Shown here piece after piece: positions 131-25,456 of a stretch of DNA of 38,700 nucleotides. Source of the DNA: Alphaproteobacteria bacterium (GTDB lineage: Bacteria > Pseudomonadota > Alphaproteobacteria > Acetobacterales > Acetobacteraceae). Position 1 is the first letter of the stretch. Each line of letters starts with the position of its first letter. The position numbers were made by a program, and so were the translations under genes. The stretch is taken from contig JAPLOH010000060.1 of assembly GCA_026400845.1 (NCBI GenBank), positions 1 to 38,700 on the forward strand, in the 5' to 3' direction. The notes beneath the pieces are model-generated. The model made no database searches. It was given only the letters and a program-made list of their open reading frames with translations, and was not told the origin of the DNA.

Positions 131-263
131 AAGAAAGCGCTTCTTTTTTGAAAAAAGAAGCAAAAACTTTTCATCCGTTGGCTCCGCTCTCTCCGCGGAG
201 AGAGCGGAGCCAACGGAGAGAAGTTTTTTGGTTCTTTTTTTCAAAAAAGAACCGCTTCCTTAC
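131..263. repeat. palindromic terminator-like element, copy 1 (complete)
   Basis: This non-coding element fills the gap between two convergent genes. Its centre, 174-217, is a perfect 44-bp palindrome around CCGCGG. On the left, 139-161 forms a small hairpin (GCTTCTTTTTT, one base, AAAAAAGAAGC). On the right, 230-253 forms another (GGTTCTTTTTT, two bases, AAAAAAGAACC). The whole element is one long imperfect inverted repeat, since the left arm resembles the reverse complement of the right arm. Read on either strand, the GC-rich stem is followed within about six bases by a T-tract, the layout of a Rho-independent terminator working in both directions. That fits its place between the histidine kinase and polA. 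Related copies lie at 8951, 11765, 13951 and 25314. Confidence 0.9.
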
Positions 264-265
264 CG

Positions 266-2158
266 TCAATGCGCCTCCGCCCAACTCCGTCCAATACCGG
301 TTTCAACCACGAGCGGCACCGACAGTGTCGCGGCATTCTCCATCACGTCACGGACCAGTACTGCGAGGGCCGCCGCCTCCGCGTCGGGCGCCTCGAACAG
401 CAGTTCGTCATGCACCTGGAGCAGCATGCGGGACCGCAGCCCGGCGGCGGCAAGGGCGGCGGGCAGCTTCACCATGGCCCGTTTGATGATATCGGCGGCG
501 CCGCCTTGCAGCGGCGCGTTGATCGCCTGGCGCTCGGCATAGCCGCGCATCGCCTGGTTCTTCTCGGCGATGCCGCGGATCCAGATCCGTCGGCCGAAGG
601 GAGTCAGCACATAGCCCTTGTCGCGGGCCTCCTCGCGGGCGGCGTTCATGTAGGCTCGGATGCCGGGGTAGCGGGCGAAATAGGCGTCGATGTAGTGGCG
701 CGCCTCGCCGGGCGAGATCTGCAACTGGCGGCCGAGGCCGAAGGCGGAAATGCCGTAGATGATGCCGAAATTGATCGCCTTGGCGCGGCGGCGGGTGGCG
801 CCATCCATCCCCTCCATCGGCACGCCGAACACCTCCGAGGCGGTGCGGGCATGGATGTCCTCGCCCCTGGCGAAGCTCTCCTTCAGCGCCGGCAAGTCGG
901 CGACATGGGCGAGCAGCCGCAGTTCGATCTGCGAGTAGTCGGCGCTTACCAGCATATGGCCGGGCTCGGCGATGAAGGCGCGCCGGATACGGCTGCCCTC
1001 CTCGGTGCGGACGGGGATGTTTTGCAGATTGGGGTCGGTCGAGGAGAGGCGACCGGTCGAGGCGATGGCCATGGCGAAGCTGGTATGAACGCGCCCGGTT
1101 TCGGGGTTAATCTGCTGCGCCAGCGCGTCGGTATAGGTGGATTTGAGCTTCGCCAGTTGCCGCCATTCCAGCACGCGCGACGGCAGCTCATGCCCCTGCT
1201 CCGCGAGGGTTTGCAGCACCGCCGCGTCGGTGCCCCAGGCGCCGGCCTTCAGCCGCTTGCCGCCCGGAAGCTTCATCTTGTCGAGCAGGATCTCGCCGAG
1301 CTGCTTGGCCGAGGCAAGGTTGAAGGCCTCGCCGGCGAGGCGGTGGATATCGGTTTCCATCACCGCCATGCGCGCCTCGAAATCGGCCGACATGGCGCGC
1401 AGATCGGCCTCGTCGACCTTGATGCCGGCCTGCTCCATGGCCAGCAGGATGGGGATCAGGCGGCGCTCGACCTGCTCGTACATCGCCAGCGCCCGCGCCG
1501 CCCGCAGCCTTGGCCGCAGCGCATGCCATAGTCTCAGGGTGACGTCGGCATCTTCGGCGGCATAGACGGTGGCCCGGTCGAGCGGCACCTGCGCGAAGGG
1601 CAGGCGCCCCTTGCCGGTGCCGGTCACGCTGTCGAAACTGATGGGGGTATGGCCGAGATGCAGCGTGGACAGCTCGTCCATGCCATGGCCGTGGGCGCCG
1701 GCATCCATGCAGTGGGAAATCACCATGGTGTCGTCGAGCGGCAAGGCGAGCGGCGCGCCGGCACGCTGAAAAATCGCCAGGTCGAACTTGGCGTTCTGGA
1801 ATATCTTCAGCGTGGCGGGGTCCGCCAGCAGCGGGGAAATCGCAGAGATCGCCGCGTCCAGCGGGATCTGCTCCTCCAGCCCCGCATGGCGGAGCGGCAC
1901 GTAGCAGGCCCGGCCCGACGCGGTGGCCAGCGAAAAGCCGACGATGTTGGCGCGCAACGCATCGAGCCCGTCGGTCTCGGTATCGACGGCGACGATGCCG
2001 GCCCGGGTTGCCTCCGCGATCCAGGCATCGAGCGCCGCCAGCGTGGTCACGCTCTCATAGGGTCCGAACCCTTCGGCGGAGCCGCTCTGCGCGAGATTGG
2101 GGAAAAGATATCGTGGAGCGGAAGCCCTGGGCGCGCAGGAAATCGGACAGCACGGCAT
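266..2158 (-). CDS. polA: DNA polymerase I, 3' part (3'-5' exonuclease and polymerase domains)
   Basis: This frame holds the C-terminal two thirds of DNA polymerase I, which fills gaps in repair and removes Okazaki primers. The 3'-5' exonuclease domain starts at VTTLAALDAW and keeps its DTETDGLD metal motif (about residues 59-66). The polymerase domain has motif A (DYSQIELRLLAH), motif B (RRRAKAINFGIIYG) and motif C (QVHDELLFE), all intact, so it should be catalytically competent. The first roughly 20 residues from the ATG at 2158 are not polymerase sequence: they are the out-of-frame copy of the end of the 5' part. Translation must enter from the overlapping upstream frame by skipping one base, probably in the CCCC/TTTT run at 2099-2106. 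Without that, this is a broken gene or a sequencing error. Corrected length would be about 902 residues, normal for PolA. Confidence 0.9.
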   Translation of the reverse strand: MPCCPISCAPRASAPRYLFPNLAQSGSAEGFGPYESVTTLAALDAWIAEATRAGIVAVDTETDGLDALRANIVGFSLATASGRACYVPLRHAGLEEQIPLDAAISAISPLLADPATLKIFQNAKFDLAIFQRAGAPLALPLDDTMVISHCMDAGAHGHGMDELSTLHLGHTPISFDSVTGTGKGRLPFAQVPLDRATVYAAEDADVTLRLWHALRPRLRAARALAMYEQVERRLIPILLAMEQAGIKVDEADLRAMSADFEARMAVMETDIHRLAGEAFNLASAKQLGEILLDKMKLPGGKRLKAGAWGTDAAVLQTLAEQGHELPSRVLEWRQLAKLKSTYTDALAQQINPETGRVHTSFAMAIASTGRLSSTDPNLQNIPVRTEEGSRIRRAFIAEPGHMLVSADYSQIELRLLAHVADLPALKESFARGEDIHARTASEVFGVPMEGMDGATRRRAKAINFGIIYGISAFGLGRQLQISPGEARHYIDAYFARYPGIRAYMNAAREEARDKGYVLTPFGRRIWIRGIAEKNQAMRGYAERQAINAPLQGGAADIIKRAMVKLPAALAAAGLRSRMLLQVHDELLFEAPDAEAAALAVLVRDVMENAATLSVPLVVETGIGRSWAEAH

Positions 2159-2975
2159 GGTCGGGCTCGCGCACGATCAACGCCGCGAGCTCGAGCGGGC
2201 GGGGGGCGTCCTCGCGCAGGATGACGAGTTGGCGGGAAATGCGCGCCGCCGCGGCGTGCTCGATCAGCAGGTCCCGCCGCTTGCCCGGCTTCATCGTGGG
2301 CGCGGCGGCGAGGATGCCTTCGAGGTCGCCGAATTCACCGATCAGCTGAGCGGCGGTTTTCGGGCCGATGCCGGGCACGCCGGGAACGTTGTCGACCGAG
2401 TCGCCGATCAGCGCCTGCGCCTCGATCACCTTGTCGGGCGACACGCCGAACTTCTCCATCACCTCGGCCGGCCCGATCGGCTTCTGCTTCATCGGATCGA
2501 GCATCTCGACGCCGGGCCGGATGAGCTGCATCAGATCCTTGTCGGAGGAAACGATGGTCGCGCGCCCTCCGACGTCGGTCACCGCGCGGGCGTAGGAGGC
2601 GATGAGGTCATCGGCCTCCCAGTCGGCCAGCTCGATCGCCGGCACCCCAAAGGCGGTTGTGGCCTCGCGCACGATGGCGAATTGCGGACGCAGCTCCTCT
2701 GGCGCCTCCGGTCGCTGCGCCTTGTAGGCCTCGTAGAGCCGGTTTCTGAACGTGTAGCGTCCGGCGTCGAAAATGACCGCGATATGGGTGCCGACATGCT
2801 CTTTCAGGAGGCGCGCCAGCATGTTGGTGAAGCCGAACACGGCATTCACCGGCACGCCATCCGGCCGGGTCATCGGCGGCAGGGCATGGAAGGCACGGAA
2901 GATGAAACCCGATCCGTCGATCAGGATCAGATGCGGCGGCGCGTTGGGCGGCGGCGGCGCCGTAAGGTCGTTCAC
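2055..2975 (-). CDS. polA: DNA polymerase I, 5' part (5'-3' exonuclease domain)
   Basis: These 306 residues are the N-terminal 5' nuclease domain of DNA polymerase I. LILIDGSGFIFRAFHA, the acidic DWEADDLIAS and SSDKDLMQL motifs, and the helix-hairpin-helix segment (VPGVPGIGPKTAAQLI) are all visible. After ALSDFLRAQGFRS the frame runs into unrelated residues (STISFPQSRAERLRRR) and stops at 2055, while the polymerase continues in the next frame; the two frames overlap by about 100 bases. A single base too many near 2099-2106 explains the break. The start is GTG at 2975, six bases after the stop of the zinc-finger gene, so the two are probably cotranscribed. PolA loss is tolerated but costly in bacteria, so a sequencing or assembly indel is at least as likely as a true pseudogene. 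Confidence 0.9.
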   Translation of the reverse strand: MNDLTAPPPPNAPPHLILIDGSGFIFRAFHALPPMTRPDGVPVNAVFGFTNMLARLLKEHVGTHIAVIFDAGRYTFRNRLYEAYKAQRPEAPEELRPQFAIVREATTAFGVPAIELADWEADDLIASYARAVTDVGGRATIVSSDKDLMQLIRPGVEMLDPMKQKPIGPAEVMEKFGVSPDKVIEAQALIGDSVDNVPGVPGIGPKTAAQLIGEFGDLEGILAAAPTMKPGKRRDLLIEHAAAARISRQLVILREDAPRPLELAALIVREPDHAVLSDFLRAQGFRSTISFPQSRAERLRRRVRTL

Positions 2976-2981
2976 CGGGGC

Positions 2982-3179
2982 TCAGTGCCCATGGTCGTCC
3001 CCGGCGCCATCGTTCAGCACGTAGAGGCGCGAGCAATAGGGGCACATGATCTCCTGGCCGGCGATGCGCAGGAACACGCGGGGGTGGCCGAGCGCGCCGT
3101 CCCCGCCATCGCAGGCGATGGTGCGCTCGTCCACATGGATGATCTCGGTGGGTTTGGGGCCGGTGGCGCCGTCGGGCAT
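2982..3179 (-). CDS. small CHCC zinc-finger protein
   Basis: This 65-residue protein contains the ligand pattern of the zf-CHCC family: a Cys in IACDGGDG, a His in ALGHPRVFL, and the CPYC pair in IMCPYCSRLYVL. The family is related to the zinc-binding end of the mitochondrial complex I subunit NDUFS6, and it is common as a short stand-alone protein in alphaproteobacteria. Its role there is poorly defined; an accessory role in respiratory complex I is an inference from homology. The tail is rich in Asp, Gly and His (DGAGDDHGH). It starts with ATG at 3179 and lies six bases upstream of polA, so it probably heads that transcript. It is divergent from the hydrolase gene, with about 50 bases for both promoters. 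Confidence 0.85.
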   Translation of the reverse strand: MPDGATGPKPTEIIHVDERTIACDGGDGALGHPRVFLRIAGQEIMCPYCSRLYVLNDGAGDDHGH

Positions 3180-3230
3180 GAAATATCCTCGGGGTTGTCG
3201 TGCTGAGGGGTCCCATAACGCGGGTCCGCC

Positions 3231-4247
3231 ATGATAGCCATGGCGCGCATGCTTTCAACCATACACCATCTGTCGCGCCGTGCCGCCCTGCTGGGCGCGC
3301 CCGCGTTGCTCGCCGCCTGCGCCGGCGCGGCGACGCCGCCAGGGCCGGTCGTGAGGACAGCCGCGATGGGTGACGACTCCTTCCTGATGCGCGATGGTGC
3401 CGCCCTGCCCTATCGCGCCTGGCTGCCTGCCGGCGCGGCGGACGCTGTGGTGCTCGCACTGCATGGCTTCAACGACAGCCGCGACGCCTGGGAAATCCCG
3501 GCCCCCGCCTTCGCCGATGCCGGGATCGCCTTCTACGCGCCTGACCAGCGCGGCTTCGGCGCGGCGCCCGGCCGCGGGCTGTGGGCCGGGGCCGAGGCGA
3601 TGGTGGATGATGCGGCGGACATGGTCGCAGCACTGCGCGCCCGCCATCCCGGCCAGCGTTTGATCCTGATGGGCGAAAGCATGGGTGGCGCGGTGCTGAT
3701 GCGCCTCGCCACCCGCGGGAGCGCGCCGGATGTCGCGGGCTATGTCCTGCTGGCGCCCGCGGTGTGGGGCCGGGCGCGGATGAACCTGTTAATGCGCGGC
3801 GGATTGTTCCTGGCCGCCAATTTGACGCCCGGCATGACCGTCGCACGGCCGCCGCCGCCGATCAGGATCTACGCCAGCGACAATGCCGACGCGATCCGCC
3901 GCCTGGGGCGAAACCCGCTGACCATCCTCGAGACCCGCTTCGACACCATGGCCGGGCTGGTCGACCTGATGGACCTCGCCCTCGCCGCCGCCCCGCAATT
4001 CGCCGCCCCCGGCCTGTTCCTCTACGGCGCCCGCGACGAGATCGTGCCGCCCGCCGCAACGCGCGCCACCTGGTCGACCCTGCCGGCGTCGGCTCGGCAA
4101 GCACTCTATACCGATGGTTGGCACCTGCTGATGCGCGATCTCGCCCGCGCCCTGCCGATCGCCGATACCATATCGTGGATCCGAAACCCCTCCGCGCCGC
4201 TTCCCTCCGGCGCCGAAGCCCGCGCCGCCACCTGGTTGGAGAGCTAG
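3231..4247 (+). CDS. alpha/beta hydrolase, lipoprotein-like (lysophospholipase family)
   Basis: The protein has a positively charged, hydrophobic N-terminus ending in the lipobox-like LLAAC, so it is probably exported and lipid-anchored. The rest is a Hydrolase_4-type alpha/beta fold: LALHGFNDS oxyanion region, PDQRGFGAAP, the nucleophile elbow GESMGG (catalytic Ser), the acid in YGARDEIVPP and the His in DGWHLLMRD. This triad fits monoacylglycerol lipase or lysophospholipase-like esterases; the actual substrate cannot be read from the sequence. Three in-frame ATGs (3231, 3240, 3249) could start it; none has a strong ribosome site, and the last gives the most usual signal peptide. Its stop overlaps that of the PEP-CTERM gene on the other strand within the shared CTAG at 4244-4247. 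Confidence 0.85.
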   Translation: MIAMARMLSTIHHLSRRAALLGAPALLAACAGAATPPGPVVRTAAMGDDSFLMRDGAALPYRAWLPAGAADAVVLALHGFNDSRDAWEIPAPAFADAGIAFYAPDQRGFGAAPGRGLWAGAEAMVDDAADMVAALRARHPGQRLILMGESMGGAVLMRLATRGSAPDVAGYVLLAPAVWGRARMNLLMRGGLFLAANLTPGMTVARPPPPIRIYASDNADAIRRLGRNPLTILETRFDTMAGLVDLMDLALAAAPQFAAPGLFLYGARDEIVPPAATRATWSTLPASARQALYTDGWHLLMRDLARALPIADTISWIRNPSAPLPSGAEARAATWLES

Positions 4248-5731
4248 GTCCGAGGTGATTCGTTTCCGACGACAATGTCGCGGTGGCCGGGCAGGCCGGG
4301 GGCGATCTGCCGCCGCGGCGTGGCCCAGGCGAGCAGCGCGAGTGCGGCGGCGAACAGGCCGATGGAGGCCGGTTCGGGGACGCCCTGCACCACGAGATCG
4401 AGTTCGCCACTGCCGCGAACCGCGGCAATCACCGGATGGTCGCCACCGGGGGCAATGCACAGCCAGCGATCCGTCGCCGTGCTGCTGCAGGCGATGCCGT
4501 TGAGGGCGAAGCTGTCGATATGGCCGGAGATGCTCGCATAGCCGTCGATGGCTTTGAAACTGTCACCGGGGGCGAGCAGGTAGCCGTCGGTGAGGTCGAG
4601 CGCGAAGCTGCCGGCGAGCGACACCGCGCCGGTCACGCTCAACGCCCCGTACTGGCCCTCCACGGTGCCGGCGGCCAGCAGGTCGAGCGTGCCGCCGCTG
4701 AGCGCGAAATCCCCGGTGATGCTGTGGCGCGTCGAGAGTTGGAGCAGGCCCTGGCCGGTCACGCTGCCCGCGCCGCCGTTCACCGCGATGTCCTGGTTGA
4801 GATACTGGTTGCCGGTGAGCAGCAGGTTGCCATTCACCACGGTCACCGCGCCGTTGGTGAGGGTCCCGAAGGTGCTGCCGCTGCCGCCGGCGATGGTGAG
4901 ATTCTGGTTTTCGACGGTAATGTTGCCGGTGATGAAGCCGCTATTGGTGACGGCGCCTATCGCGGCGCCCGCCCCGGTGCTGTAGATCGCGTTGGCGGCG
5001 TTGATCGTGCCGGAATTGACGATCGGCCCGAGCGCGCCCCCGTCATTGCTGATACCCATGCGCGTGCCGGTGATGATGCCGGTGTTGGCGACACTGCCGA
5101 TCGACCCGCCGGTGGCGCGGATGCCGAAGGCGCCGCCGCTTATCACGCCGGTGTTGTCGATCGACCCGATCGTCCCGCCGCCGTTGCCCAGCCCGGCGAT
5201 GCCGCCGACGATGCTGCCGCTGTTGGTGATGCCGCCGATGCCGCCGCTGTTCTTGACGCCGTAACCGCCGGACCGAATGGCGCCGTCATTGGCGAGGGTC
5301 GCGATTGTGCCGGTGTTGGCGACGCCGATAACGGCACCCCGCGCTGTCGCGCTGATCGTGCCACTGTTGCCGAGCAGCGTGGTGGCGCCATCGCTCGAGA
5401 TGCCGCCGGTGGAACCGCCGATACTGCCGCTGTTGGTGATCGTGCCCACCGAGGAGGTTCCGAGCACGACGCCGCTTGTGGTGCCGCTCACGCTGCCGGC
5501 ATTGTCCAGAGTCGTCGCGCCGCAGCCGGCCAGGTCGATGCCGTTGGTCGCGCCGGTGACGGAGCCACCCGGCAGGATGGCGATGTCGCCGCCATCGCCG
5601 GTCAGCGGGCCGGTGAGGCTGGTGGTGACGGATTGGCTGGACGGGATACAGGCGGCCTGGGCGAGCGACGGCAGGGCCATCCCGAGCAGGCCGAGGGCGG
5701 AAACACCGCCGAACAGGCGTCCACGGCGCAC
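4244..5731 (-). CDS. repetitive beta-helix-like exported protein with PEP-CTERM sorting signal
   Basis: An export signal (LFGGVSALGLLGMALPSLAQA) is followed by a long Gly, Ser, Thr and Asn-rich region. From roughly residue 70 to 290 it repeats a unit of about 23 residues of the type IGSIDNTGVISGGAFGI, in eight or nine diverged copies, as in parallel beta-helix adhesins and autotransporter passengers. There is no C-terminal beta-barrel. Instead it ends with VPEPASIGLFAAALALLAWA and then two Arg, the three-part PEP-CTERM signal recognised by exosortase systems, which target proteins to the surface or extracellular matrix. No exosortase gene lies here. The start is chosen as GTG at 5731, preceded by a good ribosome site (GGGGGGTGAG); a GTG at 5797 would add 22 residues and lacks one. 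Function is unknown beyond a surface or matrix role. Confidence 0.85.
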   Translation of the reverse strand: MRRGRLFGGVSALGLLGMALPSLAQAACIPSSQSVTTSLTGPLTGDGGDIAILPGGSVTGATNGIDLAGCGATTLDNAGSVSGTTSGVVLGTSSVGTITNSGSIGGSTGGISSDGATTLLGNSGTISATARGAVIGVANTGTIATLANDGAIRSGGYGVKNSGGIGGITNSGSIVGGIAGLGNGGGTIGSIDNTGVISGGAFGIRATGGSIGSVANTGIITGTRMGISNDGGALGPIVNSGTINAANAIYSTGAGAAIGAVTNSGFITGNITVENQNLTIAGGSGSTFGTLTNGAVTVVNGNLLLTGNQYLNQDIAVNGGAGSVTGQGLLQLSTRHSITGDFALSGGTLDLLAAGTVEGQYGALSVTGAVSLAGSFALDLTDGYLLAPGDSFKAIDGYASISGHIDSFALNGIACSSTATDRWLCIAPGGDHPVIAAVRGSGELDLVVQGVPEPASIGLFAAALALLAWATPRRQIAPGLPGHRDIVVGNESPRT

Positions 5732-5801
5732 GAACTCACCCCCCGCGGGCGTTATCCGGGGTCGATCGAGACGTGCTATGTCACGGAACCTGGTCACTGA
5801 G

Positions 5802-5852
5802 GATTGTCGATCTCCGACAACAATCTCATCACAGTTCGTTCATTTTTGTCAA
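5802..5852 (-). promoter_or_regulatory. putative promoter and leader hairpin of the PEP-CTERM gene
   Basis: The roughly 100 bases between the PfkB gene and the PEP-CTERM gene are much richer in A+T than their surroundings. On the minus strand a perfect TTGACA lies at 5852-5847; the best -10 candidate, TGAGAT 18 bases downstream, is weak. Closer to the gene, 5802-5825 can fold back: GATTGT pairs with ACAATC, and inside it GTCG pairs with CGAC, with one bulged base. Such a hairpin in the leader could bind a regulator or shape translation. This is read by eye only. Confidence 0.4.
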
Positions 5853-5905
5853 GCGACGATAGGTTTTGAGCTAAAACTGGTTGTTGAAGCTCAATTTGAG
5901 ACGGA

Positions 5906-6886
5906 TCAGTATCCGGCCAGCCGCCTCAGGTCGGCTTGCGGGCGGGCGCCGTAGTGGCTGATCACCTCCGCCGCCGCGACGCTGCCGAGGCGGCCGCATT
6001 CGGCAAGCGGTTTGCCCGCGGTAAGCCCGGCAAGAAAGCCCGCCGCATAAGCGTCGCCGGCGCCGGTGGTGTCGACAACCCGGGCGGGGACCGCCGCCAC
6101 CTCCTCGGTATCGCCGCCCCGAATGATCAGGCTGCCGGCTTCGCTACGGGTCAGCGCCGCCAGCGCGACGTCGCGGCGCGCCCAGGCGGCGGCCTCGGCG
6201 AAGGTGTTGGTCTCGTAGAGCGCGGTGATCTCCGCCTCATTGGCGAACAGGATGTCGACATGCCCGTTCACCAGTTCGCGGAAGGCGGCGCGATGGCGAT
6301 GGACGCAGAACGCGTCCGACAGCGACAGCGCAACCTGGCGGCCGGCATCGTGCGCGGCCTTGGCGGCGCGGCGGAAAGCGGCCTGGGCCTCCGGCGGGTC
6401 GAACAAATAGCCTTCGAGGTAGGTCACGGCGGCATCAGCCACCAGCGCGGTATCGACATCGGCCTCGCCGAAGGTGACGCAGGCGCCGAGATAGGTGTTC
6501 ATGGTGCGCTGCCCGTCCGGCGTCACCATGATGAGGCAGCGCGCAGTGGGCGCCCCGCCCCGCAGCGGCGGGGTGGGGAAATGCACGCCGACGGCACCGA
6601 TATCGTGGTGGAATACGCGGCCGAGCTGGTCGTCGGCGACCTTGCCGAGATAGGCGACCTTTGCCCCCATCATGGCGGCGACCGCGCAGGTGTTGGCGGC
6701 CGAACCGCCCGACGTTTCGACCGCCGGCGGCATGGCGGCGTAGAGCGCGTCCGCGGTCGCGGTATCGATCAGCGCCATGGCGCCCTTGTGCATGTCGTGG
6801 CGCGAGAGGAACGCCTCATCCACCGGGGCGACGACGTCGACGATGGCGTTGCCGATGCCGAGGATATCGTAGGTCGGGGCGGTCAT
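5906..6886 (-). CDS. PfkB-family sugar/nucleoside kinase, adenosine kinase-like
   Basis: The 326-residue product is a ribokinase-fold kinase. It opens with YDILGIGNAIVDVV, contains the substrate-binding ETSGGSAANTCAVA signature, an NEAEITALYE segment, and the anion hole and catalytic base in DTTGAGDAYAAGFLAG. Proteins of this pattern in alphaproteobacteria are usually annotated as adenosine kinase, which phosphorylates adenosine to AMP; related enzymes act on ribose or fructose, so substrate remains inferred. The start is set at the ATG at 6886 because residues upstream are low-complexity and belong to another frame. It lies four bases after the stop of the acidic-tailed unknown gene and is in line with nadE, so a purine/NAD nucleotide theme is plausible. 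Confidence 0.85.
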   Translation of the reverse strand: MTAPTYDILGIGNAIVDVVAPVDEAFLSRHDMHKGAMALIDTATADALYAAMPPAVETSGGSAANTCAVAAMMGAKVAYLGKVADDQLGRVFHHDIGAVGVHFPTPPLRGGAPTARCLIMVTPDGQRTMNTYLGACVTFGEADVDTALVADAAVTYLEGYLFDPPEAQAAFRRAAKAAHDAGRQVALSLSDAFCVHRHRAAFRELVNGHVDILFANEAEITALYETNTFAEAAAWARRDVALAALTRSEAGSLIIRGGDTEEVAAVPARVVDTTGAGDAYAAGFLAGLTAGKPLAECGRLGSVAAAEVISHYGARPQADLRRLAGY

Positions 6887-6890
6887 GGGT

Positions 6891-7259
6891 CTATTCCTCG
6901 TCTTCTTCGTCGGGGGTGTCGTCGCGCGGATCGAGCGCGCGCCAGTTGCGGTCATGCCGGTCGGCCGGGACGTCGGCGAACAGCGCGATTTCCGGGCCGC
7001 TCTTCCAGCCACCCTCGCCGGCATCCACCACCTCGGCGTCCTCGCCGAAGGCGAACCAGGCGTCGATCACCTCGCGCCCGGTGAGCCCGCCGGCGCGGCA
7101 CAGCTCGACGCTGTCGCGGACGTAGCGGCGCGCGAACTCGTTGGCCTGCATGAGGGTGGGGAAGCCGCCGATCTCCTCGGAGATGCCGTCCTCGGCACCG
7201 CCCGAGAGGTCGCGGATGCGCACCCGCCAGCCGCCGTCCGGCGCAAAAATGTCGCTCAT
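6891..7259 (-). CDS. conserved hypothetical protein with acidic tail
   Basis: I do not recognise this 122-residue protein. It starts MSDIFAPDGGWRVRIRDLSG, has a compact mixed alpha/beta-looking body (FPTLMQANEFARRYVRDSVE, then EVIDAWFAFGEDAEVV) and ends in an acidic tail, DPRDDTPDEEDEE. No signal peptide, membrane segment or Cys motif is seen. Its start codon overlaps the stop of nadE in ATGA (7256-7259), and the PfkB gene follows four bases after its stop, so it is translated as part of a tight nadE-unknown-kinase set. Codon use matches its neighbours, so it is a real gene rather than a shadow. The overlap suggests, but does not prove, a link to NAD or nucleotide metabolism. Confidence 0.8.
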   Translation of the reverse strand: MSDIFAPDGGWRVRIRDLSGGAEDGISEEIGGFPTLMQANEFARRYVRDSVELCRAGGLTGREVIDAWFAFGEDAEVVDAGEGGWKSGPEIALFADVPADRHDRNWRALDPRDDTPDEEDEE

Positions 7260-8920
7260 GCGATGAGGTTCGTGAAGCCGTTGGTGATCGGGTAGCGCCG
7301 GTCCCGCCCGAAGGCGCGCGGCGTGATCTTCACCCCCGGCGGCGCCTGACGGCGTTTGTATTCGGCGCGATCGAGCATCCGCCACACCCGCAGCACGGTG
7401 GCGCGCTCGTAGCCCTTGGCGACCAGCGCGTCGACCGACATTTCGCCTTCGACGAGGCCTTCGAGGATAGCGTCCAGAATTTCGTACGGCGGCAGCGTGT
7501 CCTGGTCGGTCTGGTTGGGCTTGAGCTCCGCCGATGGCGGCTTGGTGATGATCCGCTCCGGGATCACGCGTCCGGCCGGGCCGAGCGCACCGTTGAAATG
7601 ATGGGCGTTGCGCCAGTGGCAGAGCGCGAACACCGTCATCTTGTAGACGTCCTTCAGCACCGAATAGCCGCCGCACATGTCGCCGTAGAGCGTGGCGTAT
7701 CCGACCGACATTTCCGATTTGTTGCCGGTGGTCAGCACCATGTGGCCGAGCTTGTTGGAGATTGCCATCAGGATCAGCCCGCGCGCGCGGGACTGGATGT
7801 TCTCCTCCGTGATGTCGGCCTGTCGCCCGGCGAAGACCGGGGCCAGCATGGCGCCGAACGCCTCCATCGCCGGCACGATCGGCACCGTCTCGCAGGAAAT
7901 CCCGAGGAGGCCCGCGCACTCGGCCGCGTCATCCAGGCTGTCCTGGCTGGTATAGGGGCTCGGCATCATGAAGGTCCGCACCTTGTCGCCACCCAGCGCA
8001 TCGACGGCAACGGCGGCGGAGAGCGCGCTGTCGATACCGCCAGACAACCCGAGGATCACGCCGGGGAAGCGGTTCTTTCGCACGTAGTCCCCGAGGCCGA
8101 GCACCATCGAACGGTAGATCGAACCGAGGCGGTCCGGCTCGATCGCCAAGGCAAGCGGGGCGCAGACCATCGTTTCGCCCTGGCGCGTCCATGTGGTGAG
8201 CGCCACCTGTTCCTCGAAGAAGGGCATTTGCAGCGCGAGCGAGCGATCGGCGTTGAGCACGAAGCTGGCACCCTCGAACACCAGTTCGTCCTGCCCGCAG
8301 ACCTGGGCGCAGAACACGAAGGGCAGCCCGGTCTCGACCACCCGGCTGACGGCGAGCTGGATGCGGGTCGACTGCTTGCCGACCTCAAAGGGCGAGCCGT
8401 TGATGGACAGGAGTAACTCGGCGCCACTCTCCGCCAGTGTTTCGGCGACCGCCGGAAACCACCAATCCTCACAGACCATCACGCCGATGCGGACGCCGCG
8501 GAAATTCACCGGCCCCGGCGGCGGGCCGGCGTCGAACACCCGCTTCTCGTCGAACACGCCGTAGTTCGGCAGCTCGTGCTTGGCGCGGCGGGTGAGGATC
8601 TTGCCACCGTCCATGACATAAGCCGCGTTGTAGAGCTTGCCGTCCTGCGACCACGGCCCGCCGATCAGCACGCCCGGCCCGCCATCGGCGGTATCGGCGG
8701 CGAGTTCGGCGAGTGCCGCCTCGCACGCCGCGACAAAGGCCGGCTTGCGGATGAGGTCCTCCGTCGGATAGCCAGCGATGAACATCTCGGGCGCCACCAC
8801 CAGGTTCGCTCCCAAAGCGGCGGCCTCGGCACGGGCGGCGCGGATGCGCGCGAGATTGGCGTCGACCTGCCCGACATGCGAGTTGATCTGGGCGAGGGCG
8901 ATTTTGAGCGTGTCGGACAT
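7256..8920 (-). CDS. nadE: glutamine-dependent NAD+ synthetase
   Basis: This 554-residue enzyme makes NAD+ from nicotinate adenine dinucleotide, with glutamine as nitrogen source. The N-terminal half is a nitrilase-type glutaminase domain with its triad in order: Glu in VAPEMFIAGYP, Lys in AKHELPNYGVF and Cys in VMVCEDWWFP. The C-terminal half is the ATP-dependent synthetase, with the PP-loop LGLSGGIDSALSAA, TGNKSEMSVGY and the late KPPSAELKPNQTDQDTLPPY segment. Length is typical for the two-domain form. It starts with ATG at 8920 and its stop overlaps the next start (ATGA). A nicotinate phosphoribosyltransferase gene lies upstream on the same strand, but copy 2 of the terminator-like element sits between them, so nadE probably has its own promoter near 8921-8950. 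Confidence 0.95.
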   Translation of the reverse strand: MSDTLKIALAQINSHVGQVDANLARIRAARAEAAALGANLVVAPEMFIAGYPTEDLIRKPAFVAACEAALAELAADTADGGPGVLIGGPWSQDGKLYNAAYVMDGGKILTRRAKHELPNYGVFDEKRVFDAGPPPGPVNFRGVRIGVMVCEDWWFPAVAETLAESGAELLLSINGSPFEVGKQSTRIQLAVSRVVETGLPFVFCAQVCGQDELVFEGASFVLNADRSLALQMPFFEEQVALTTWTRQGETMVCAPLALAIEPDRLGSIYRSMVLGLGDYVRKNRFPGVILGLSGGIDSALSAAVAVDALGGDKVRTFMMPSPYTSQDSLDDAAECAGLLGISCETVPIVPAMEAFGAMLAPVFAGRQADITEENIQSRARGLILMAISNKLGHMVLTTGNKSEMSVGYATLYGDMCGGYSVLKDVYKMTVFALCHWRNAHHFNGALGPAGRVIPERIITKPPSAELKPNQTDQDTLPPYEILDAILEGLVEGEMSVDALVAKGYERATVLRVWRMLDRAEYKRRQAPPGVKITPRAFGRDRRYPITNGFTNLIA

Positions 8921-8950
8921 GGTTCCAGGCTATGCGGAAGGGGCGAGGAA

Positions 8951-9083
8951 GGGAAGGAAGGGCTTCTTTTTGAAAAAAGAAGCAAAAACTTTTTATCCGT
9001 TCGCTTCGCACGCTCCATGGTGAGTGCGAAGCAAACGAGGGAAAGTTTTTTGGTTCTTTTTTTCAAAAAAGAACCGCTTCCTT
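8951..9083. repeat. palindromic terminator-like element, copy 2 (complete)
   Basis: This element has the same layout as copy 1. It is bounded by GGAAGGAAG on the left and CTTCCTTCC on the right, carries the left mini-hairpin with GCTTC/GAAGC, the right mini-hairpin with GGTTC/GAACC at 9052-9075, and a central stem around CCATGG at about 8998-9037. The stem sequence differs strongly from copy 1, yet about 17 of 20 pairs still match. It lies in the 188-base gap between the nicotinate phosphoribosyltransferase gene and nadE, both on the minus strand, where it would end transcription of the former. Nothing else is seen in that gap. Confidence 0.9.
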
Positions 9084-9108
9084 CCATGCCTCTGGCTACT
9101 TGTGGAGT

Positions 9109-11764: not shown

Positions 11765-11857
11765 GGAAGGCAGAAGGAAGCGCTGCTTTTTGAAAAAAGA
11801 AGCAAAAACTTTTTATCCGTGGCTTCGCGCTCTCCGCGGCGAGTCAGAAGCCGGGGG
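11765..11857. repeat. palindromic terminator-like element, copy 3 (right arm missing)
   Basis: In the 327-base gap between the divergent DAHP synthase and SUF regulator genes lies the left arm (mini-hairpin near 11780-11803) and a degenerate central stem in which GGCTTC pairs with GAAGCC and CTC with GAG. The right arm is absent, as the sequence passes directly into GGGGGTCGAGCGG. Unlike the complete copies it is not at the 3' end of any gene. The rest of the gap should hold both promoters; I see only a short CGGCCG hairpin at 11891-11909 and no clear promoter hexamers. Confidence 0.8.
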
Positions 11858-12441: not shown

Positions 12442-12450
12442 GAGAACAGC

Positions 12451-13950
<1,500 letters not shown>

Positions 13951-13982
13951 AAGTTTTTTGGTTCTTTTTTTCAAAAAAGAAC
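13951..13982. repeat. palindromic element, right half only, between sufB and sufC
   Basis: Immediately after the sufB stop comes the right arm of the repeat family: AAGTTTTTTG and then a perfect 10-bp A/T-rich hairpin, GTTCTTTTTT, two bases, AAAAAAGAAC (13961-13982). The GC-rich central stem and the left arm are absent, and the outer GG/CC pair of the hairpin is lost. Without the stem this should not terminate transcription, in line with its place inside an operon. The transcript could still form a U/A hairpin just ahead of the sufC ribosome site. Confidence 0.85.
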
Positions 13983-14012
13983 ATTCTTGCTTGCTTGTTT
14001 AAGGACGTTCAA

Positions 14013-17699: not shown

Positions 17700-17706
17700 G
17701 GATGGC

Positions 17707-18066
17707 ATGAACGAGACCGCACCGCAGGTCGGCACCTGGTCGCCGGACGGGGTAAGCGAGGGCAAGCCCTCCGAGGAGGCGCTGATCGCCGCCTGCGCCT
17801 CGGTGTATGACCCGGAAATCCCGGTCAACATCTACGAACTCGGCCTGATCTACACGATCGACATCAACGACGCCGGCAACGTGAAGGTCGAGATGACGCT
17901 CACCGCGCCGGCCTGCCCGAGCGCGCAGGAACTGCCCGAGCAGGTGCGCGATGCCATCCTCGCCGTCCCCGGCGTCACGACCTGCGACGTCGAGGTGGTG
18001 TGGGACCCGCCGTGGGACCAGTCGCGGATGACCGAAGATGCGCGCCTCGCGCTCAATATGTTCTGA
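17707..18066 (+). CDS. DUF59 (MIP18) SUF-associated protein, SufT-like
   Basis: The 119-residue protein is a DUF59/MIP18-fold protein of the kind found in SUF operons and often called SufT. Characteristic segments are VYDPEIPVNIYELGLIYTID, MTLTAPACPSAQELPEQV with the conserved Cys, and VEVVWDPPWDQSRM. Members help maturation of iron-sulfur proteins, probably in cluster transfer. Start is set at ATG 17707, with GAGG five bases upstream; in-frame GTG 17692 and ATG 17671 would extend it into sufU. It lies between sufU and sufA in the same transcript. Confidence 0.9.
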   Translation: MNETAPQVGTWSPDGVSEGKPSEEALIAACASVYDPEIPVNIYELGLIYTIDINDAGNVKVEMTLTAPACPSAQELPEQVRDAILAVPGVTTCDVEVVWDPPWDQSRMTEDARLALNMF

Positions 18067-18086
18067 ACAACGGAACGGGGAACACC

Positions 18087-18455
18087 ATGTCGACCACCAC
18101 TACGACCGTCCGACCGCGCCGCCCCTTGCCGCCGCTGATGGCGCTCACCGATGCCGCCGCCGAGCGCCTGCGCAGTCTCTACAGCGCCGGGCAGGAAGGC
18201 ATGCTGCTGCGCATCTCCGTCAACACCAAGGGCTGCTCGGGCCTCGCCTATGACATGACCTGGACGGACGCGCCCGGCCCGGGCGACGAGAGCGTCGCCG
18301 ACAAGGGCGTCACCGTCCTGGTGGACCGCAAGGCGAGCCTGTTCCTCATCGGCACGACGATGGATTACGAGGTGAAGGACTTGTCATCGGGCTTCACATT
18401 CGTGAATCCTAACGAGAAGGGGCGGTGCGGCTGCGGCGAGAGCTTCCACGTCTGA
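18087..18455 (+). CDS. sufA: HesB/IscA-family Fe-S carrier SufA
   Basis: SufA carries assembled clusters from SufBCD to target enzymes. The 122-residue product has the A-type carrier motif: one Cys in NTKGCSGLAYDM and the terminal pair in EKGRCGCGESF. It begins MSTTTTTVRPRRPLPPL, a short variable leader typical of the family, at ATG 18087, 20 bases after the DUF59 stop. It is the last Fe-S gene of the operon; serine acetyltransferase follows 24 bases later on the same strand, with no terminator seen between them. Confidence 0.93.
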   Translation: MSTTTTTVRPRRPLPPLMALTDAAAERLRSLYSAGQEGMLLRISVNTKGCSGLAYDMTWTDAPGPGDESVADKGVTVLVDRKASLFLIGTTMDYEVKDLSSGFTFVNPNEKGRCGCGESFHV

Positions 18456-18479
18456 CGGCGCCCCACGGGAGTGACTGCG

Positions 18480-19307
18480 ATGAGCGAGCTTGATTGCGGC
18501 GTGCGTGGCGTGTTCGTTGCCGAGGCCGTCGGTGTGTGGGACATCATACTCCGTGAGGCCGCCACCGCCGTGCTGCGGGACCGGCTGATGAGCCGGGTGG
18601 TCGGCGTGCTGGTCACCCCGCATGGCGATCTCGCCGGCGCCATGGCCTGCATGCTCGCCCGCAAACTCAACGACGACGGCATCGACCGCATGACGCTCGC
18701 CGGCCTCATCAGCGACGCCTACGAGGACGAGCCCGACATCGTCGCCGCCACCGCGGCCGACCTGCTGGCGATCCGCGACCGCGACCCCTCCTGCGAGGAT
18801 CTGCTCACCCCCTTCCTTTATTTCAAAGGCTTTCAGGCGTTGCAGGCGCATCGCGTCAGCCACTGGCTGTGGAAGGGCGGGCGGACCCACTTGGCACGGC
18901 ACATGCAGAGCCGCATTTCCGAAATCTTCGGCGCCGATTTCCACCCCGCCGCCCGCGTTGGCCGCGGCATCATGATCGACCATGGCACCGGGGTGGTGAT
19001 CGGCGAGACGGCGGTGATCGAGGATGACGTCTCGATGCTGCATGAGGTCACGCTCGGCGGCACCGGCAAGGCCGGCGGCGACCGCCACCCCAAGGTGCGG
19101 CGCGGCGTGCTGATCGGCGCCGGCGCCAAGATCCTCGGGAATATCGAGGTCGGCGAGGGCGCCAAGGTCGGCGCCGGTTCGATCGTGCTGGACGATGTCG
19201 CCCCCTTCACCACCGTCGTTGGCATCCCCGCCCGCCCGGTCGGCCGCATCGCCGGGATGGCCGCGCTGACCATGGACCAGACCTGGCCGCACGACCGCAG
19301 CGGCTGA
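18480..19307 (+). CDS. cysE: serine O-acetyltransferase
   Basis: This 275-residue enzyme acetylates serine with acetyl-CoA, the committed step of cysteine synthesis. It has the helical N-terminal domain (LMSRVVGVLV ... DLLAIRDRDPSCEDLLTPFLYFKGFQALQAHRVSHWLW), then the left-handed hexapeptide beta-helix with IDHGTGVVIGETAVIEDDV, LGGTGKAGGDRHPKVRRGV and VVGIPARPVG. ATG 18480 is chosen because GGGAG lies eight bases upstream; GTG 18471 is possible. As it is 24 bases after sufA and on the same strand, it may be cotranscribed with the SUF operon and supply cysteine for SufS, a sensible metabolic link (inference). Confidence 0.93.
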   Translation: MSELDCGVRGVFVAEAVGVWDIILREAATAVLRDRLMSRVVGVLVTPHGDLAGAMACMLARKLNDDGIDRMTLAGLISDAYEDEPDIVAATAADLLAIRDRDPSCEDLLTPFLYFKGFQALQAHRVSHWLWKGGRTHLARHMQSRISEIFGADFHPAARVGRGIMIDHGTGVVIGETAVIEDDVSMLHEVTLGGTGKAGGDRHPKVRRGVLIGAGAKILGNIEVGEGAKVGAGSIVLDDVAPFTTVVGIPARPVGRIAGMAALTMDQTWPHDRSG

Positions 19308-19308
19308 G

Positions 19309-19338
19309 CCGGCGCGAGACATCCCGGCGCGAGACATC
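19309..19338. repeat. perfect 15-bp tandem duplication
   Basis: Between cysE and the epoxide hydrolase gene, CCGGCGCGAGACATC is present twice in a row without mismatch. The second copy is followed by AAGGACACATC and the hydrolase ATG. It looks like a recent slippage duplication in the leader; no inverted symmetry or promoter is evident. Confidence 0.9.
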
Positions 19339-19349
19339 AAGGACACATC

Positions 19350-20477
19350 ATGACCGAGCCGCTGCCCGCCGCATTGCTGCCCGACGGCATTCGCGCCCGC
19401 ATTGTGGCGGGGATCAACGGGCTCGACATCCACATGCTGGAGGCCGGGTTCGAGCAGCCGGGCCGCCCCTGCCTGTTGCTGCTGCACGGCTTCCCCGAAC
19501 TCGCCTTCAGTTGGCGCAAGGTGATGCGCCCGCTCGCCGCGCTGGGCTACCACGTGATCGCGCCCGATCTGCGTGGCTATGGCCGCACCACCGGCTGGGA
19601 GAACGGCTACGATGCCGATCTTGGCCAATTCCGCCTGTTCAACGTCATCCGTGACATGCTCGGCCTGCTGCACGCGCTCGGTCGGGACCATGTCGAGGCG
19701 GTGGTTGGCCATGATTTCGGCTCGCCGGTCGCCGCCTGGTGCGCTTTGGTGCGGCCGGATGTGTTTCGCGCGGTGGCGATGATGAGCTCACCCTTCGGCG
19801 GCCCGCCCCGCATCGGCCGCGCCGCCCCGGCCCGCGACATCCATGCCGACCTGGCAGCCCTGAAGCGGCCGCGCAAGCACTATCAGTGGTATTATTCGAC
19901 CCGCCCCGCCAATGCCGACATGGTCAACGCGCCGCAGGGGCTGCACGCCTTCCTGCGCGGCTATTACCACCACAAGAGCGCGGATTGGGCGGAGAACCGA
20001 CCCTATCGCCTCGCCGGCTGGACCGCCGAGGAACTGGCCAAGCTGCCGACCTACTACGTGATGGACCTCGGCGAAGACATGGCCGCCACCGTCGCCCACG
20101 AGATGCCCACCGCAGATGCCATCGCGGCCAATCGTTGGCTGCCGGAGGCGGACCTCGCGGTCTACGCCGCTGAATACGGCCGCACCGGCTTCCAGGGCGG
20201 GCTGCAATGGTATCGCAGTCGCACCACCGGGCGCTTCGAAACCGAGTTGGAGATGTTCTCCGGCCGGGCGATCGACGTGCCGTCCTGCTTCATCTCGGGC
20301 GCCAGCGACTGGGGCATCCACCAGTTCCCCGGCGGGCTGGAGGCGATGAATGGCACCTCCTGCACGCAGCTTCGCTTCGTGGAGCTGATCCCGGGCGCCG
20401 GGCATTGGGTGCAGCAGGAACAGCCGGAAGCGACTGTCGCAGCACTCAGCCGGTTTCTCGCCAGCGCGAAAGGCTGA
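19350..20477 (+). CDS. epoxide hydrolase-like alpha/beta hydrolase
   Basis: The 375-residue product has the features of soluble epoxide hydrolases, which open epoxides to diols: the oxyanion motif LLHGFPELAFSWR, the Asp nucleophile in the elbow GHDFGSPVA (Asp where esterases have Ser), a cap region with Tyr-rich KHYQWYYSTR, and the His in PGAGHWVQQEQPEA. The acid residue is probably the Asp in ISGASDWGIHQ. Haloalkane dehalogenases share this layout, so substrate is open. Start is ATG 19350 behind AAGGAC. Its last 32 bases overlap the 3' end of the VOC gene on the opposite strand, with both reading frames coding there. Confidence 0.88.
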   Translation: MTEPLPAALLPDGIRARIVAGINGLDIHMLEAGFEQPGRPCLLLLHGFPELAFSWRKVMRPLAALGYHVIAPDLRGYGRTTGWENGYDADLGQFRLFNVIRDMLGLLHALGRDHVEAVVGHDFGSPVAAWCALVRPDVFRAVAMMSSPFGGPPRIGRAAPARDIHADLAALKRPRKHYQWYYSTRPANADMVNAPQGLHAFLRGYYHHKSADWAENRPYRLAGWTAEELAKLPTYYVMDLGEDMAATVAHEMPTADAIAANRWLPEADLAVYAAEYGRTGFQGGLQWYRSRTTGRFETELEMFSGRAIDVPSCFISGASDWGIHQFPGGLEAMNGTSCTQLRFVELIPGAGHWVQQEQPEATVAALSRFLASAKG

Positions 20478-24527: not shown

Positions 24528-25310
24528 ATGGATACCGGTCTCAAAGGCAAGAAGGCCATCGTCTGCGCCGCCAGCAAGGGGCTCGGCCGCGCCTGCGCCA
24601 TTTCGCTCGCGCGCGAAGGCGTCGACCTCGTCATCACCGCCCGCACCGCCGAAACGCTGGAAGCCACTGCGGCGGAAATCCGCGCGATGACCGGCGTCAA
24701 CGTGATCGCGGTGGCCGGTGACATCACCACCGAGGCCGGCCGCGCCGCGGCGCTGGCCGCCTGCCCGGAGCCCGACATCCTGGTCAACAACGCCGGCGGG
24801 CCGCCCCCCGGCGACTTCCGCGACTGGGACCGCGACGCCTGGATCAAGGCGGTGGACGCCAACATGCTGACGCCGATCTTCCTCATCAAATCGGTGGTCG
24901 ACGGCATGATCGCGCGCAAATTCGGCCGTATCGTCAACATCACCTCGGCCTCGGTGAAGTCGCCCATCCCGCATCTCGGCCTCTCCAACGGCGCCCGTGC
25001 CGGGCTCACCGGCTTCGTCGCCGGCCTCGCCCGCCAGGTGGCGCGCCACAACGTCACCATCAACGGCCTGCTGCCCGGCCCCTTCCTTACCGACCGCCTC
25101 AAGGGCACCATGGCCGGCATGGCCGCCAAGGCCGGACGGACGCTGGAGGACGAGCTCGCTGCCCGCATGAAGGACACCCCGGCCGGCCGGGCCGGCGATC
25201 CCTCGGAGTTCGGCGACGCCTGCGCCTTCCTCTGCTCGGTCACCTCGAGCTTCATCGTCGGCCAGAATCTCGTGCTCGACGGCGGGGCATTCAACTCCTC
25301 GATGGGCTGA
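24528..25310 (+). CDS. divergent short-chain dehydrogenase/reductase
   Basis: The 260-residue protein has the SDR fold but lacks standard catalytic residues. The nucleotide motif is CAASKGLGRA in place of TGxxxGIG, NNAG is present (DILVNNAGGPPP), and the Ser is kept in NITSASVKSP. Where the Tyr-x-x-x-Lys pair should be, the sequence reads LSNGARAGLTGF, with Ser and Arg in the aligned positions. It ends with the usual FIVGQNLVLDGGAF. This matches a known FabG-like SDR subgroup that departs from the normal motifs and whose reaction is unclear. ATG 24528 lies behind AAGGGAGA. Copy 5 of the palindromic element follows its stop by three bases. Confidence 0.88.
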   Translation: MDTGLKGKKAIVCAASKGLGRACAISLAREGVDLVITARTAETLEATAAEIRAMTGVNVIAVAGDITTEAGRAAALAACPEPDILVNNAGGPPPGDFRDWDRDAWIKAVDANMLTPIFLIKSVVDGMIARKFGRIVNITSASVKSPIPHLGLSNGARAGLTGFVAGLARQVARHNVTINGLLPGPFLTDRLKGTMAGMAAKAGRTLEDELAARMKDTPAGRAGDPSEFGDACAFLCSVTSSFIVGQNLVLDGGAFNSSMG

Positions 25311-25313
25311 TTG

Positions 25314-25456
25314 AAGAAGGAAGGCAGCGCTTCTTTTTGAAAAAAGAAGCAAAAACTTTTTATCCATTGGCCGCGAAGTCTCCCCGGCGAGGTCGAAGCC
25401 AACGGGTAAAAGTTTTTTGGTTCTTTTTTTCAAAAAAGAACCGCTTCCCTTCCTTC
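25314..25456. repeat. palindromic terminator-like element, copy 5 (complete)
   Basis: The element begins three bases after the SDR stop. Outer arms are GAAGGAAGG and, at the far end, CCCTTCCTTC. The left mini-hairpin (25329-25350) has GCTTC/GAAGC, the right one (25418-25442) GGTTC/GAACC. The central stem (about 25364-25406) is the most degenerate of the complete copies: TTGGC pairs with GCCAA and CTC with GAG around CCCCGG, with internal mismatches. T-tracts flank it on both sides. It should end SDR transcription and separate it from the binding-protein operon. Confidence 0.9.

What the first reader, a model, noticed from the sequence alone, without database searches (positions are those of the whole stretch)
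131..25456. A dispersed family of palindromic, bidirectional terminator-like elements
Five related elements occur at 131-263, 8951-9083, 11765-11857, 13951-13982 and 25314-25456. Seen directly: complete copies have outer GGAAGGAAG/CTTCCTTCC-like ends, a mini-hairpin in each arm and a GC-rich central stem flanked by T-tracts on both strands. The stem sequence differs widely between copies, yet pairing is largely kept. The three complete copies all lie at gene 3' ends, one of them between convergent genes. Known: a GC stem followed by a T-tract is an intrinsic terminator. Inferred: a mobile or amplified terminator family, comparable in style to REP/BIME elements but structurally different. I know of no description of it.
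Basis: partly seen in the sequence, partly recalled or inferred. Interest (0 to 1): 0.78.

Follow-up and report, generated by a model that had tools for sequence, protein, structure and literature searches.

The report
Gene-end terminator repeats with paired arms
A 130-letter palindromic DNA repeat is scattered directly behind gene stop signals in a family of vinegar-type bacteria and in viral DNA sequences; in this genus it looks like an off-switch for transcription from both sides, and no description of it was found in the papers searched.

Summary
The copies belong to a dispersed family: 137 left-arm sites in the 5.4 Mb genome, 0 for the reversed control. A complete copy is GGAAGGAAGC, an A/T-rich mini-hairpin, A5CTTTT, a ~48 nt variable centre, AAAGT6, a second mini-hairpin and GCTTCCTTCC. 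Arms are nearly invariant. Centres in four species of the genus are GC hairpins, with partial compensation. Of 69 complete copies analysed, 26 lie between convergent, 34 between tandem and 5 between divergent genes; 53 have an arm within 25 nt of a stop codon, against 15% of random intergenic positions. On the two strands 67 and 56 of 72 pass a classical terminator score; with shuffled centres 6 of 52. Nine of nine readable sites lack the copy in at least one sister species. A covariance model hits 47 of 150 Acetobacteraceae genomes, but in a sample of the class only the own genome (1 of 190). Against: elsewhere centres mostly do not fold (12 of 47), so arms and gene-end position are what is conserved. 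Best reading: a REP/SPRITE-like repeat acting here as a bidirectional intrinsic terminator. Function and mobility are untested.

The parts
129..263 (.). Complete element 1: outer purine tract 129-138, left mini-hairpin 139-161, terminator-like hairpin 167-223, T-tracts 224-229 (+) and 162-166 (-), right mini-hairpin 230-253, outer GCTTCCTTAC
   Evidence: between convergent genes (stop TAG 127-129 by eye; polA-like gene ends 266). Model coordinates 139-253
8951..9083 (.). Complete element 2: left mini-hairpin 8962-8983, terminator-like hairpin 8989-9045, right mini-hairpin 9052-9075
   Evidence: 3' side of gene 9109-10269(-), upstream of the NAD-synthase-like gene 7256-8920(-)
25314..25456 (.). 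Complete element 3: left mini-hairpin 25329-25350, terminator-like hairpin 25356-25412, right mini-hairpin 25419-25442
   Evidence: behind gene 24528-25310(+), tandem with 25539-27059(+)
11765..11857 (+). Partial copy: left arm (mini-hairpin region 11782-11803) with decayed centre and no right arm, in a divergent intergenic region
   Evidence: absent from the orthologous site in sister genome G151
13948..13990 (+). Lone right arm between a sufB-like gene and the next gene; the stop codon TAA (13948-13950) lies at the junction and appears to come with the arm
   Evidence: present in G151, absent in G150, G020 and G111, which end the gene with another stop
127..129 (+). TAG stop codon of the upstream gene, which merges into the element's GGAAG outer end
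   Evidence: read by eye; general pattern

Best explanation
The elements are a dispersed, non-coding REP/SPRITE-like repeat. It has two inverted arms, each a purine outer tract, an A/T mini-hairpin and an A-tract plus T-tract, around a centre of about 48 nt. It sits directly behind stop codons. In this genus the centre is a GC hairpin (seen in four of five species sampled). Transcribed from either side, that hairpin is followed at once by 5-6 U, a 5-nt break and 6-7 more U, which makes it a bidirectional intrinsic terminator that closes one tandem gene or both convergent genes. Shown here: anatomy, copy number, placement, terminator score on both strands, compensatory change, presence/absence between species. 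Inferred: that RNA polymerase stops there, that copies arise by mobilisation or recombination of arms, and that the arms' strict conservation reflects recognition by a protein or by the copying mechanism.
For: 137 sites, reversed control 0. Of 69 complete copies 26 convergent, 34 tandem, 5 divergent, 3 inside predicted genes, 1 edge; chi-square of the first three classes against intergenic bp p=3e-10; 53 of 69 within 25 nt of a stop against 15% of intergenic positions. Sister species G151, G150, G020: 23 convergent, 19 tandem, 1 divergent of 43; 38 of 42 within 25 nt. Terminator score above 0 in 67 and 56 of 72 on the two strands of G000 copies; 6 of 52 with shuffled centres. Covariation: none of 500 shuffles reaches four of five measures, and slid controls score 0.046 at most against 0.089. 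At one site the closest sister has, by eye, an ordinary GC hairpin plus T-run where G000 has the element; at another G111 has a GC hairpin plus T-runs. A Microviridae record has, by eye, a GC hairpin followed by a 36/36 match to the right arm. Annotated plasmids of Pseudoroseomonas cervicalis carry one copy between convergent and one between tandem genes.
Against: No transcript data. The generic terminator scan of window 1-20000 did not list the GC stems of elements 1 and 2, because an A/T stretch separates stem and T-run. In copies from other genera, named-genome loci and viral contigs the centre mostly does not fold (12 of 47 with z below -2), and a single copy of sister species G111 does not reach it either (z -1.5), yet arms and, in viral contigs, gene-end position are kept. 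Own stems are only modestly better than chimaeric ones (-26.6 against -23.2 kcal/mol, p=0.005; 52 of 72 copies usable). Halves, which should not terminate, are also close to stops (14 of 24). In 80 of the 119 named-genome loci the 10 complete copies include 2 divergent. The shuffle control ignores relatedness of copies. Gene-end placement alone could reflect selection against insertion elsewhere.
Confidence: 0.66

Rival explanations
1. A mobile or recombination-active DNA element defined by its arms, targeted to or tolerated at gene ends; the GC hairpin in this genus is a late, partly incidental addition that happens to terminate.
For: Arms are nearly identical across genera and viral contigs while centres change freely. 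Arms occur stem-in (complete), stem-out (inside-out) and single. G020 holds inside-out copies at two sites where G000 has complete ones. Nine of nine readable sites lack the copy in at least one sister species.
Against: No target-site duplication seen, ends fade out, no transposase met (only Y1_Tnp was searched). The GC hairpin is kept with compensation in four species of the genus, with a G150 subfamily having its own paired change, which selection on the hairpin explains better.
Confidence: 0.2
2. An mRNA 3'-end protector or processing site: the long palindrome blocks 3' exonucleases, as REP sequences do, and the actual end is made elsewhere.
For: Very stable folding of the whole element (-57 to -85 kcal/mol for the three complete window copies); location just behind stop codons.
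Against: Kept T-tracts on both strands and enrichment between convergent genes fit termination better; a protector needs no T-tract.
Confidence: 0.08
3. Cassette-type recombination sites (attC-like) at gene ends.
For: Palindrome with conserved ends and variable centre behind stop codons.
Against: Integron core motif (recalled: RYYYAAC/GTTRRRY) is in the outer 12 nt of 0 of 69 copies; the window copies stand singly beside housekeeping-type genes (polA-, NAD-synthase- and sufB-like).
Confidence: 0.02
4. Chance or assembly artefact.
For: A few copies lie at contig edges of draft genomes.
Against: Zero hits in shuffles and reversed controls; copies also in plasmid records given as complete sequences and in 47 of 150 genomes.
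Confidence: 0.01

Closest known systems
[quoted passage not shown]
   Same: Small dispersed repeat resembling an unusually long intrinsic terminator, over-represented between convergent genes and close to gene 3' ends, possibly co-opted as terminators; no target-site duplication established (PMC3049150, passages read; pointed to by the MITE review PMC10969869, passages)
   Different: 30 copies in one genome, one 18-bp duplex plus U-rich tract, AT-rich, almost confined to S. pneumoniae and S. mitis. Here: 137 left-arm sites, two-sided, paired mini-hairpin arms, exchangeable centre, inside-out forms, Acetobacteraceae and viral contigs
REP/BIME elements
   Same: Short palindromic intergenic units in inverted pairs, in both head-to-head and tail-to-tail order (BIME layout recalled)
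   Different: No GTAG/CGTC tag in the outer consensus and no cognate RAYT found; CGTC REPs were reported missing from Acetobacteraceae (PMC3733652, two passages); unit about 50 nt with A/T mini-hairpin, pair about 133 nt
Inverted uptake-signal (DUS/USS) terminators of Neisseria and Pasteurellaceae
   Same: A dispersed repeat in inverted pairs that forms terminators at gene ends (PMC1852404, passages)
   Different: Uptake signals are about 9-11 nt with generally 1,000 or more copies; here about 140 sites, a conserved arm over 30 nt, and the stem itself is the variable part
Bidirectional intrinsic terminators with A-tract and T-tract
   Same: GC hairpin flanked by A's on one side and T's on the other, at convergent gene ends (described in PMC1852404, passage)
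   Different: Ordinary ones share no sequence between loci (recalled); these share nearly identical arms
RUP, BOX and other MITEs
   Same: Short, inverted ends, intergenic, over-represented between convergent genes (PMC3049150, passages)
   Different: No target-site duplication or parental transposon found here; parental transposon not searched for beyond Y1_Tnp

Membership tests
Intrinsic (Rho-independent) bidirectional terminator | GC-rich hairpin directly followed by a U-tract on both strands | tested here: met
   Score above 0 in 67/72 and 56/72 copies of G000 and in the three complete window copies on both strands; shuffled centres 6/52 (formula and threshold recalled). Not met by most centres sampled outside the genus (12 of 47 fold)
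Intrinsic (Rho-independent) bidirectional terminator | Located at gene or transcription-unit ends | tested here: met
   60 of 69 have a gene 3' end on at least one side; 53/69 within 25 nt of a stop
Intrinsic (Rho-independent) bidirectional terminator | RNA 3' ends or reduced read-through at the T-tract | not testable with these tools
   No transcript data held
REP/BIME with RAYT | GTAG or CGTC tag at the palindrome | tested here: not met
   Outer consensus GGAAGGAAGC on both sides, 69 copies
REP/BIME with RAYT | Cognate RAYT (Y1 transposase) gene in the genome | tested here: not met
   One Y1_Tnp match, 22.5 bits against cut-off 23; its flanks (read by eye) hold other repeats and not this element
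MITE | Terminal inverted repeats and small size | tested here: met
   Inverted arms, about 133 bp
MITE | Target-site duplication at empty/filled sites | tested here: inconclusive
   Empty sites found, but element ends fade and stop codons differ; no duplication seen by eye
MITE | Parental transposon with the same ends | not tested
   Only Y1_Tnp was searched
SPRITE | 18-bp duplex plus U-rich tract with AAAA/TTTT ends, pneumococcal | tested here: not met
   Different architecture and host
Integron attC | Core site motifs at the ends | tested here: not met
   0 of 69 (motif recalled)
Rfam families | Match at gathering score | tested here: not met
   0 matches in the window

The most novel reading that the evidence does not exclude
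A family-wide gene-end module of Acetobacteraceae, also found in viral contigs: two nearly invariant A/T mini-hairpin arms that bracket about 48 nt of freely exchanged centre and settle directly behind stop codons, repeatedly and independently at the same genes, in either order of the arms. In one genus the centre has become a compensating GC hairpin, so a mobile repeat has turned into a genome-wide set of interchangeable bidirectional terminators that replace ordinary ones.
Probability: 0.35. Interest if true: 0.8.

Novelty: new variant of a known kind. Interest (0 to 1): 0.62.

Why it matters
If true, one repeat family supplies a visible share of transcript ends in a bacterial genus, and its spread can be followed site by site in sister species: terminator turnover caught in the act. 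It would also give ready-made two-way terminators for acetic acid bacteria, and it poses a clear question: what keeps the arms so alike across genera and in viral contigs while what lies between them changes.

Tried and rejected
REP/RAYT origin: one weak Y1_Tnp match whose flanks show other short repeats; those GTAGGGTGGGAC-type motifs number 1-2 in the sampled 645 kb. attC-like sites: core motif in 0 of 69. Directional use: in 34 tandem pairs the right arm faces the upstream gene in 21 and the left in 13, no clear bias. Insertion creating TAG stops: TAG not enriched (p=0.24), TAA p=0.05, TGA depleted p=0.02. The first gene finder confused sense and antisense frames (13 complete copies 'inside' genes); after retraining 3 remained. 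Single arms in viral contigs were listed but no rule was drawn. Similar 23-36 nt stretches in low-GC viral contigs, Clostridia MAGs and in E. coli, Enterococcus, Parabacteroides and Bacteroides plasmids were not pursued; they may be convergence. RNAalifold left the central stem out of model R1, so R1 is mainly a sequence-plus-arms model. A MAFFT alignment with uneven flanks was not used. A first count of folded viral centres (4 of 47) held some centres in both orientations and was replaced (6 of 27).
Full report
WHAT IS THERE. The left-arm 24-mer matches 4 times and the right-arm 34-mer 4 times in the window, with none in 100 shuffles. A complete copy reads: outer GGAAGGAAGC; mini-hairpin GCTTC-T5-G-A6-GAAGC; A5-C-TTTT; a centre of about 48 nt; AAAG-T6; mini-hairpin GGTTC-T7-C-A6-GAACC; outer GCTTCCTTCC. 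The outer consensus is nearly the same on both sides in 69 copies and fades beyond ten bases. The three complete window copies are 76-85% complementary inverted repeats and fold with z from -6.6 to -13.2 on the two strands; the two partial ones do not. Rfam gives no match in the window.

COPY NUMBER. The left-arm pattern with at most 2 mismatches occurs 137 times in the 5,398,449-base genome; the reversed pattern occurs 0 times. The gene-context work used 80 merged pieces, 645,052 bases, which hold 92 such sites. In these one pattern gave 69 complete copies and 24 halves; other patterns on overlapping sets of G000 loci gave 70, 72 and 68.

GENE CONTEXT. With a self-trained gene finder (coding fraction 0.90), the 69 complete copies are 26 convergent, 34 tandem, 5 divergent, 3 inside a predicted gene and 1 at an edge; the 24 halves are 5, 12, 3, 2 and 2. 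Intergenic DNA without elements is 14% convergent, 52% tandem and 34% divergent; chi-square on the 65 intergenic copies p=3e-10. An arm lies within 25 nt of the nearest stop in 53 of 69 complete copies, median 12 nt among those with a gene 3' side, against 15% of random intergenic positions; for halves 14 of 24. Since about 10 nt of outer tract precede the arm, many copies start at the stop codon, and seven genes end at the TGA inside the arm itself. The first gene finder had put 13 complete copies inside genes because it confused sense and antisense frames. In sister species, in 60 stretches chosen because they matched the pattern or a G000 copy: G151 3 convergent and 15 tandem; G150 12, 2 and 1 divergent; G020 8 and 2 (plus 2 inside-out, tandem). 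Together 23, 19 and 1 of 43, with 38 of 42 within 25 nt. In the 30 loci of the model search 3 convergent and 6 tandem of 9. In 80 of the 119 named-genome loci 2 convergent, 6 tandem, 2 divergent of 10 complete copies and 1, 4, 2 and 1 edge of 8 inside-out ones. Annotated plasmids of Pseudoroseomonas cervicalis have one copy between convergent genes and one between tandem genes.

TERMINATOR PROPERTIES. In the classical score that combines hairpin energy per nucleotide with a weighted T-tail (formula and threshold recalled, not from a call), 67 of 72 copies in G000 pass on the left-to-right strand and 56 of 72 on the other; with shuffled centres 6 of 52 pass (20 copies dropped because their ends did not fit the pattern). 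Sisters: G151 18 and 15 of 18, G150 15 and 15 of 15, G020 8 and 6 of 10. The three complete window copies pass on both strands. The generic terminator scan of window 1-20000 did not list the GC stems of elements 1 and 2; it wants the T-run directly after a stem of at most 20 pairs.

COVARIATION. On 28 copies, 8 of 19 central pairs show changes on both sides; over the whole structure paired cells 93.4% against 92.1% in shuffles, cells with double change 30 against 17.2, covariation score 0.089 against 0.070, none of 500 shuffles as high; further pair types 12 of 500; sliding the partner lowers the score to 0.046 or less. This control does not allow for relatedness of copies. RNAalifold itself left out many of the central pairs. 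Own stem halves fold better than chimaeras, -26.6 against -23.2 kcal/mol, p=0.005, 52 of 72 copies usable. G150 has its own paired change (ATGG with CCAT where G000 has TTGG with CCAA; read). Arms found by an anchor that requires no pairing form 4 or 5 of 5 stem pairs in 505 of 532; GCTTC/GAAGC and GGTTC/GAACC dominate, and rare types such as GTTAC/GTAAC, CTCCC/GGGAG, CTTAC/GTAAG and TTTC/GAAA keep pairing. Counted by distinct types this is weak: 5 of 54 types pair fully, against a mean of 2.0 and a maximum of 6 in shuffles.

SISTER SPECIES. I looked at 11 copies of G000 (4 in the window, 7 elsewhere) in the four other genomes of the genus held; 9 could be read in at least one. All 9 are missing from at least one sister. 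In the closest, G151, 8 were readable: 6 absent, 1 shared half (the sufB-like gene) and 1 replaced by a copy with other mini-hairpins and another centre; a further one is cut by a contig end inside the element. At absent sites other palindromes stand at the same place: in G151 an ordinary GC hairpin with a T-run behind the same gene and, at another site, two CCCTCTCCC-type palindromes; in G111 a GC hairpin with T-runs. At two sites G020 has an inside-out copy where G000 has a complete one. No target-site duplication was seen. These junctions were read by eye.

SPREAD. In a sample of the class it is in 1 of 190, the own genome, with at most 19 candidates scored and stricter filters. A viral-contig scan gave 78 stretches.

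WHAT SPEAKS AGAINST A PLAIN TERMINATOR FAMILY. Centre folding, median z: G000 -5.2 (54 of 68 below -2), G151/G150/G020 -5.0 (38 of 47), model loci -0.9 (3 of 8; seven of other genera and one of sister G111, which has z -1.5), named-genome loci -0.5 (3 of 12), viral -0.4 (6 of 27). The pattern missed the two P. cervicalis copies, which by eye do have paired GC stems. Viral complete copies still sit behind stop codons: 22 tandem, 3 convergent, 0 divergent, 1 inside and 1 edge of 27, with 19 of 25 within 25 nt; in those contigs most gene pairs are tandem anyway (680 of 732). So the family is defined by arms and place, and the hairpin centre is a feature of this genus (four of five species) and of some other copies. 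Some viral contigs and the bog_908 MAG share a centre motif (seen; not tested further). A Microviridae record has a GC hairpin followed by a 36/36 match to the right arm, with no left arm in the bases before the hairpin that I read.

KNOWN RELATIVES. SPRITE of pneumococcus is the closest precedent I met in print: a terminator-like dispersed repeat over-represented between convergent genes (PMC3049150, passages; found through PMC10969869, passages). Inverted uptake signals form terminators in Neisseria and Pasteurellaceae (PMC1852404, passages). REP membership fails on tag and RAYT; CGTC REPs were reported missing in Acetobacteraceae (PMC3733652, two passages). A 40-genome survey of stem-loop families has no occurrence of Gluconobacter, Acetobacter or Rhodospirill- in its main text (PMC2267715, find only). 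The Gluconobacter oxydans RNAseq paper has no occurrence of palindrom-, repeat or hairpin (PMC5756330, find only); the Acetobacter pasteurianus paper names REP and MITE only in general in the passages seen (PMC4686929). Ten literature searches, one of them with sequence strings, listed no description; several showed only the top 10-12 of more papers, and most subscription papers are not held, so this is not proof.

VERDICT. Best reading: a REP/SPRITE-like dispersed repeat that in this genus acts as a bidirectional intrinsic terminator; mobility is likely but not shown.

Noticed in passing
G020 loci L104, L109, L115, L299; also L318, L351, L357, L367, L384: Inside-out copies: the two arms joined at their outer ends with the stem halves pointing outwards, several of them near stop codons.
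   Followed up: partly
L091:1408-1941 (G000:C318:21274-21570): A single RAYT-like Y1 transposase gene just below the Pfam cut-off, flanked by GTGGGAC-type repeats of another sequence.
   Followed up: partly
L429:2940-3035 (MG945182.1): A Microviridae record from cattle blood carries a GC hairpin followed by an exact 36-nt right arm.
   Followed up: partly
L458, L468, L474, L499: Low-GC viral contigs with near-identical flanks have the same T-tract plus mini-hairpin motif directly before a Shine-Dalgarno-like GGAAGGAGGG.
   Followed up: no
L324, L348, L487, L496, L508: Viral contigs and the MAG bog_908 share a centre motif around GCCGGC...GGTCCGCGACAGC between the same arms, which suggests exchange between host and virus.
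   Followed up: no
G151:C222:1; G150:C372:1-124; G000:C137:7-30: Some draft contigs begin inside or right at an element, so copy number in draft genomes may be underestimated.
   Followed up: no
L052 near 3000; L086 near 9426: Single arms joined to another palindrome of the CCCTCTCCCGC type, as if a different stem had been captured.
   Followed up: no
L230:3800-3930 (G151): Two CCCTCTCCCCCC-type palindromes stand at the gene end where G000 has the element: another repeat family uses the same niche.
   Followed up: no
L002:402-1524 (G000:C9): Two left arms facing outwards around two host-like genes, one a 2Fe-2S ferredoxin by Pfam.
   Followed up: partly
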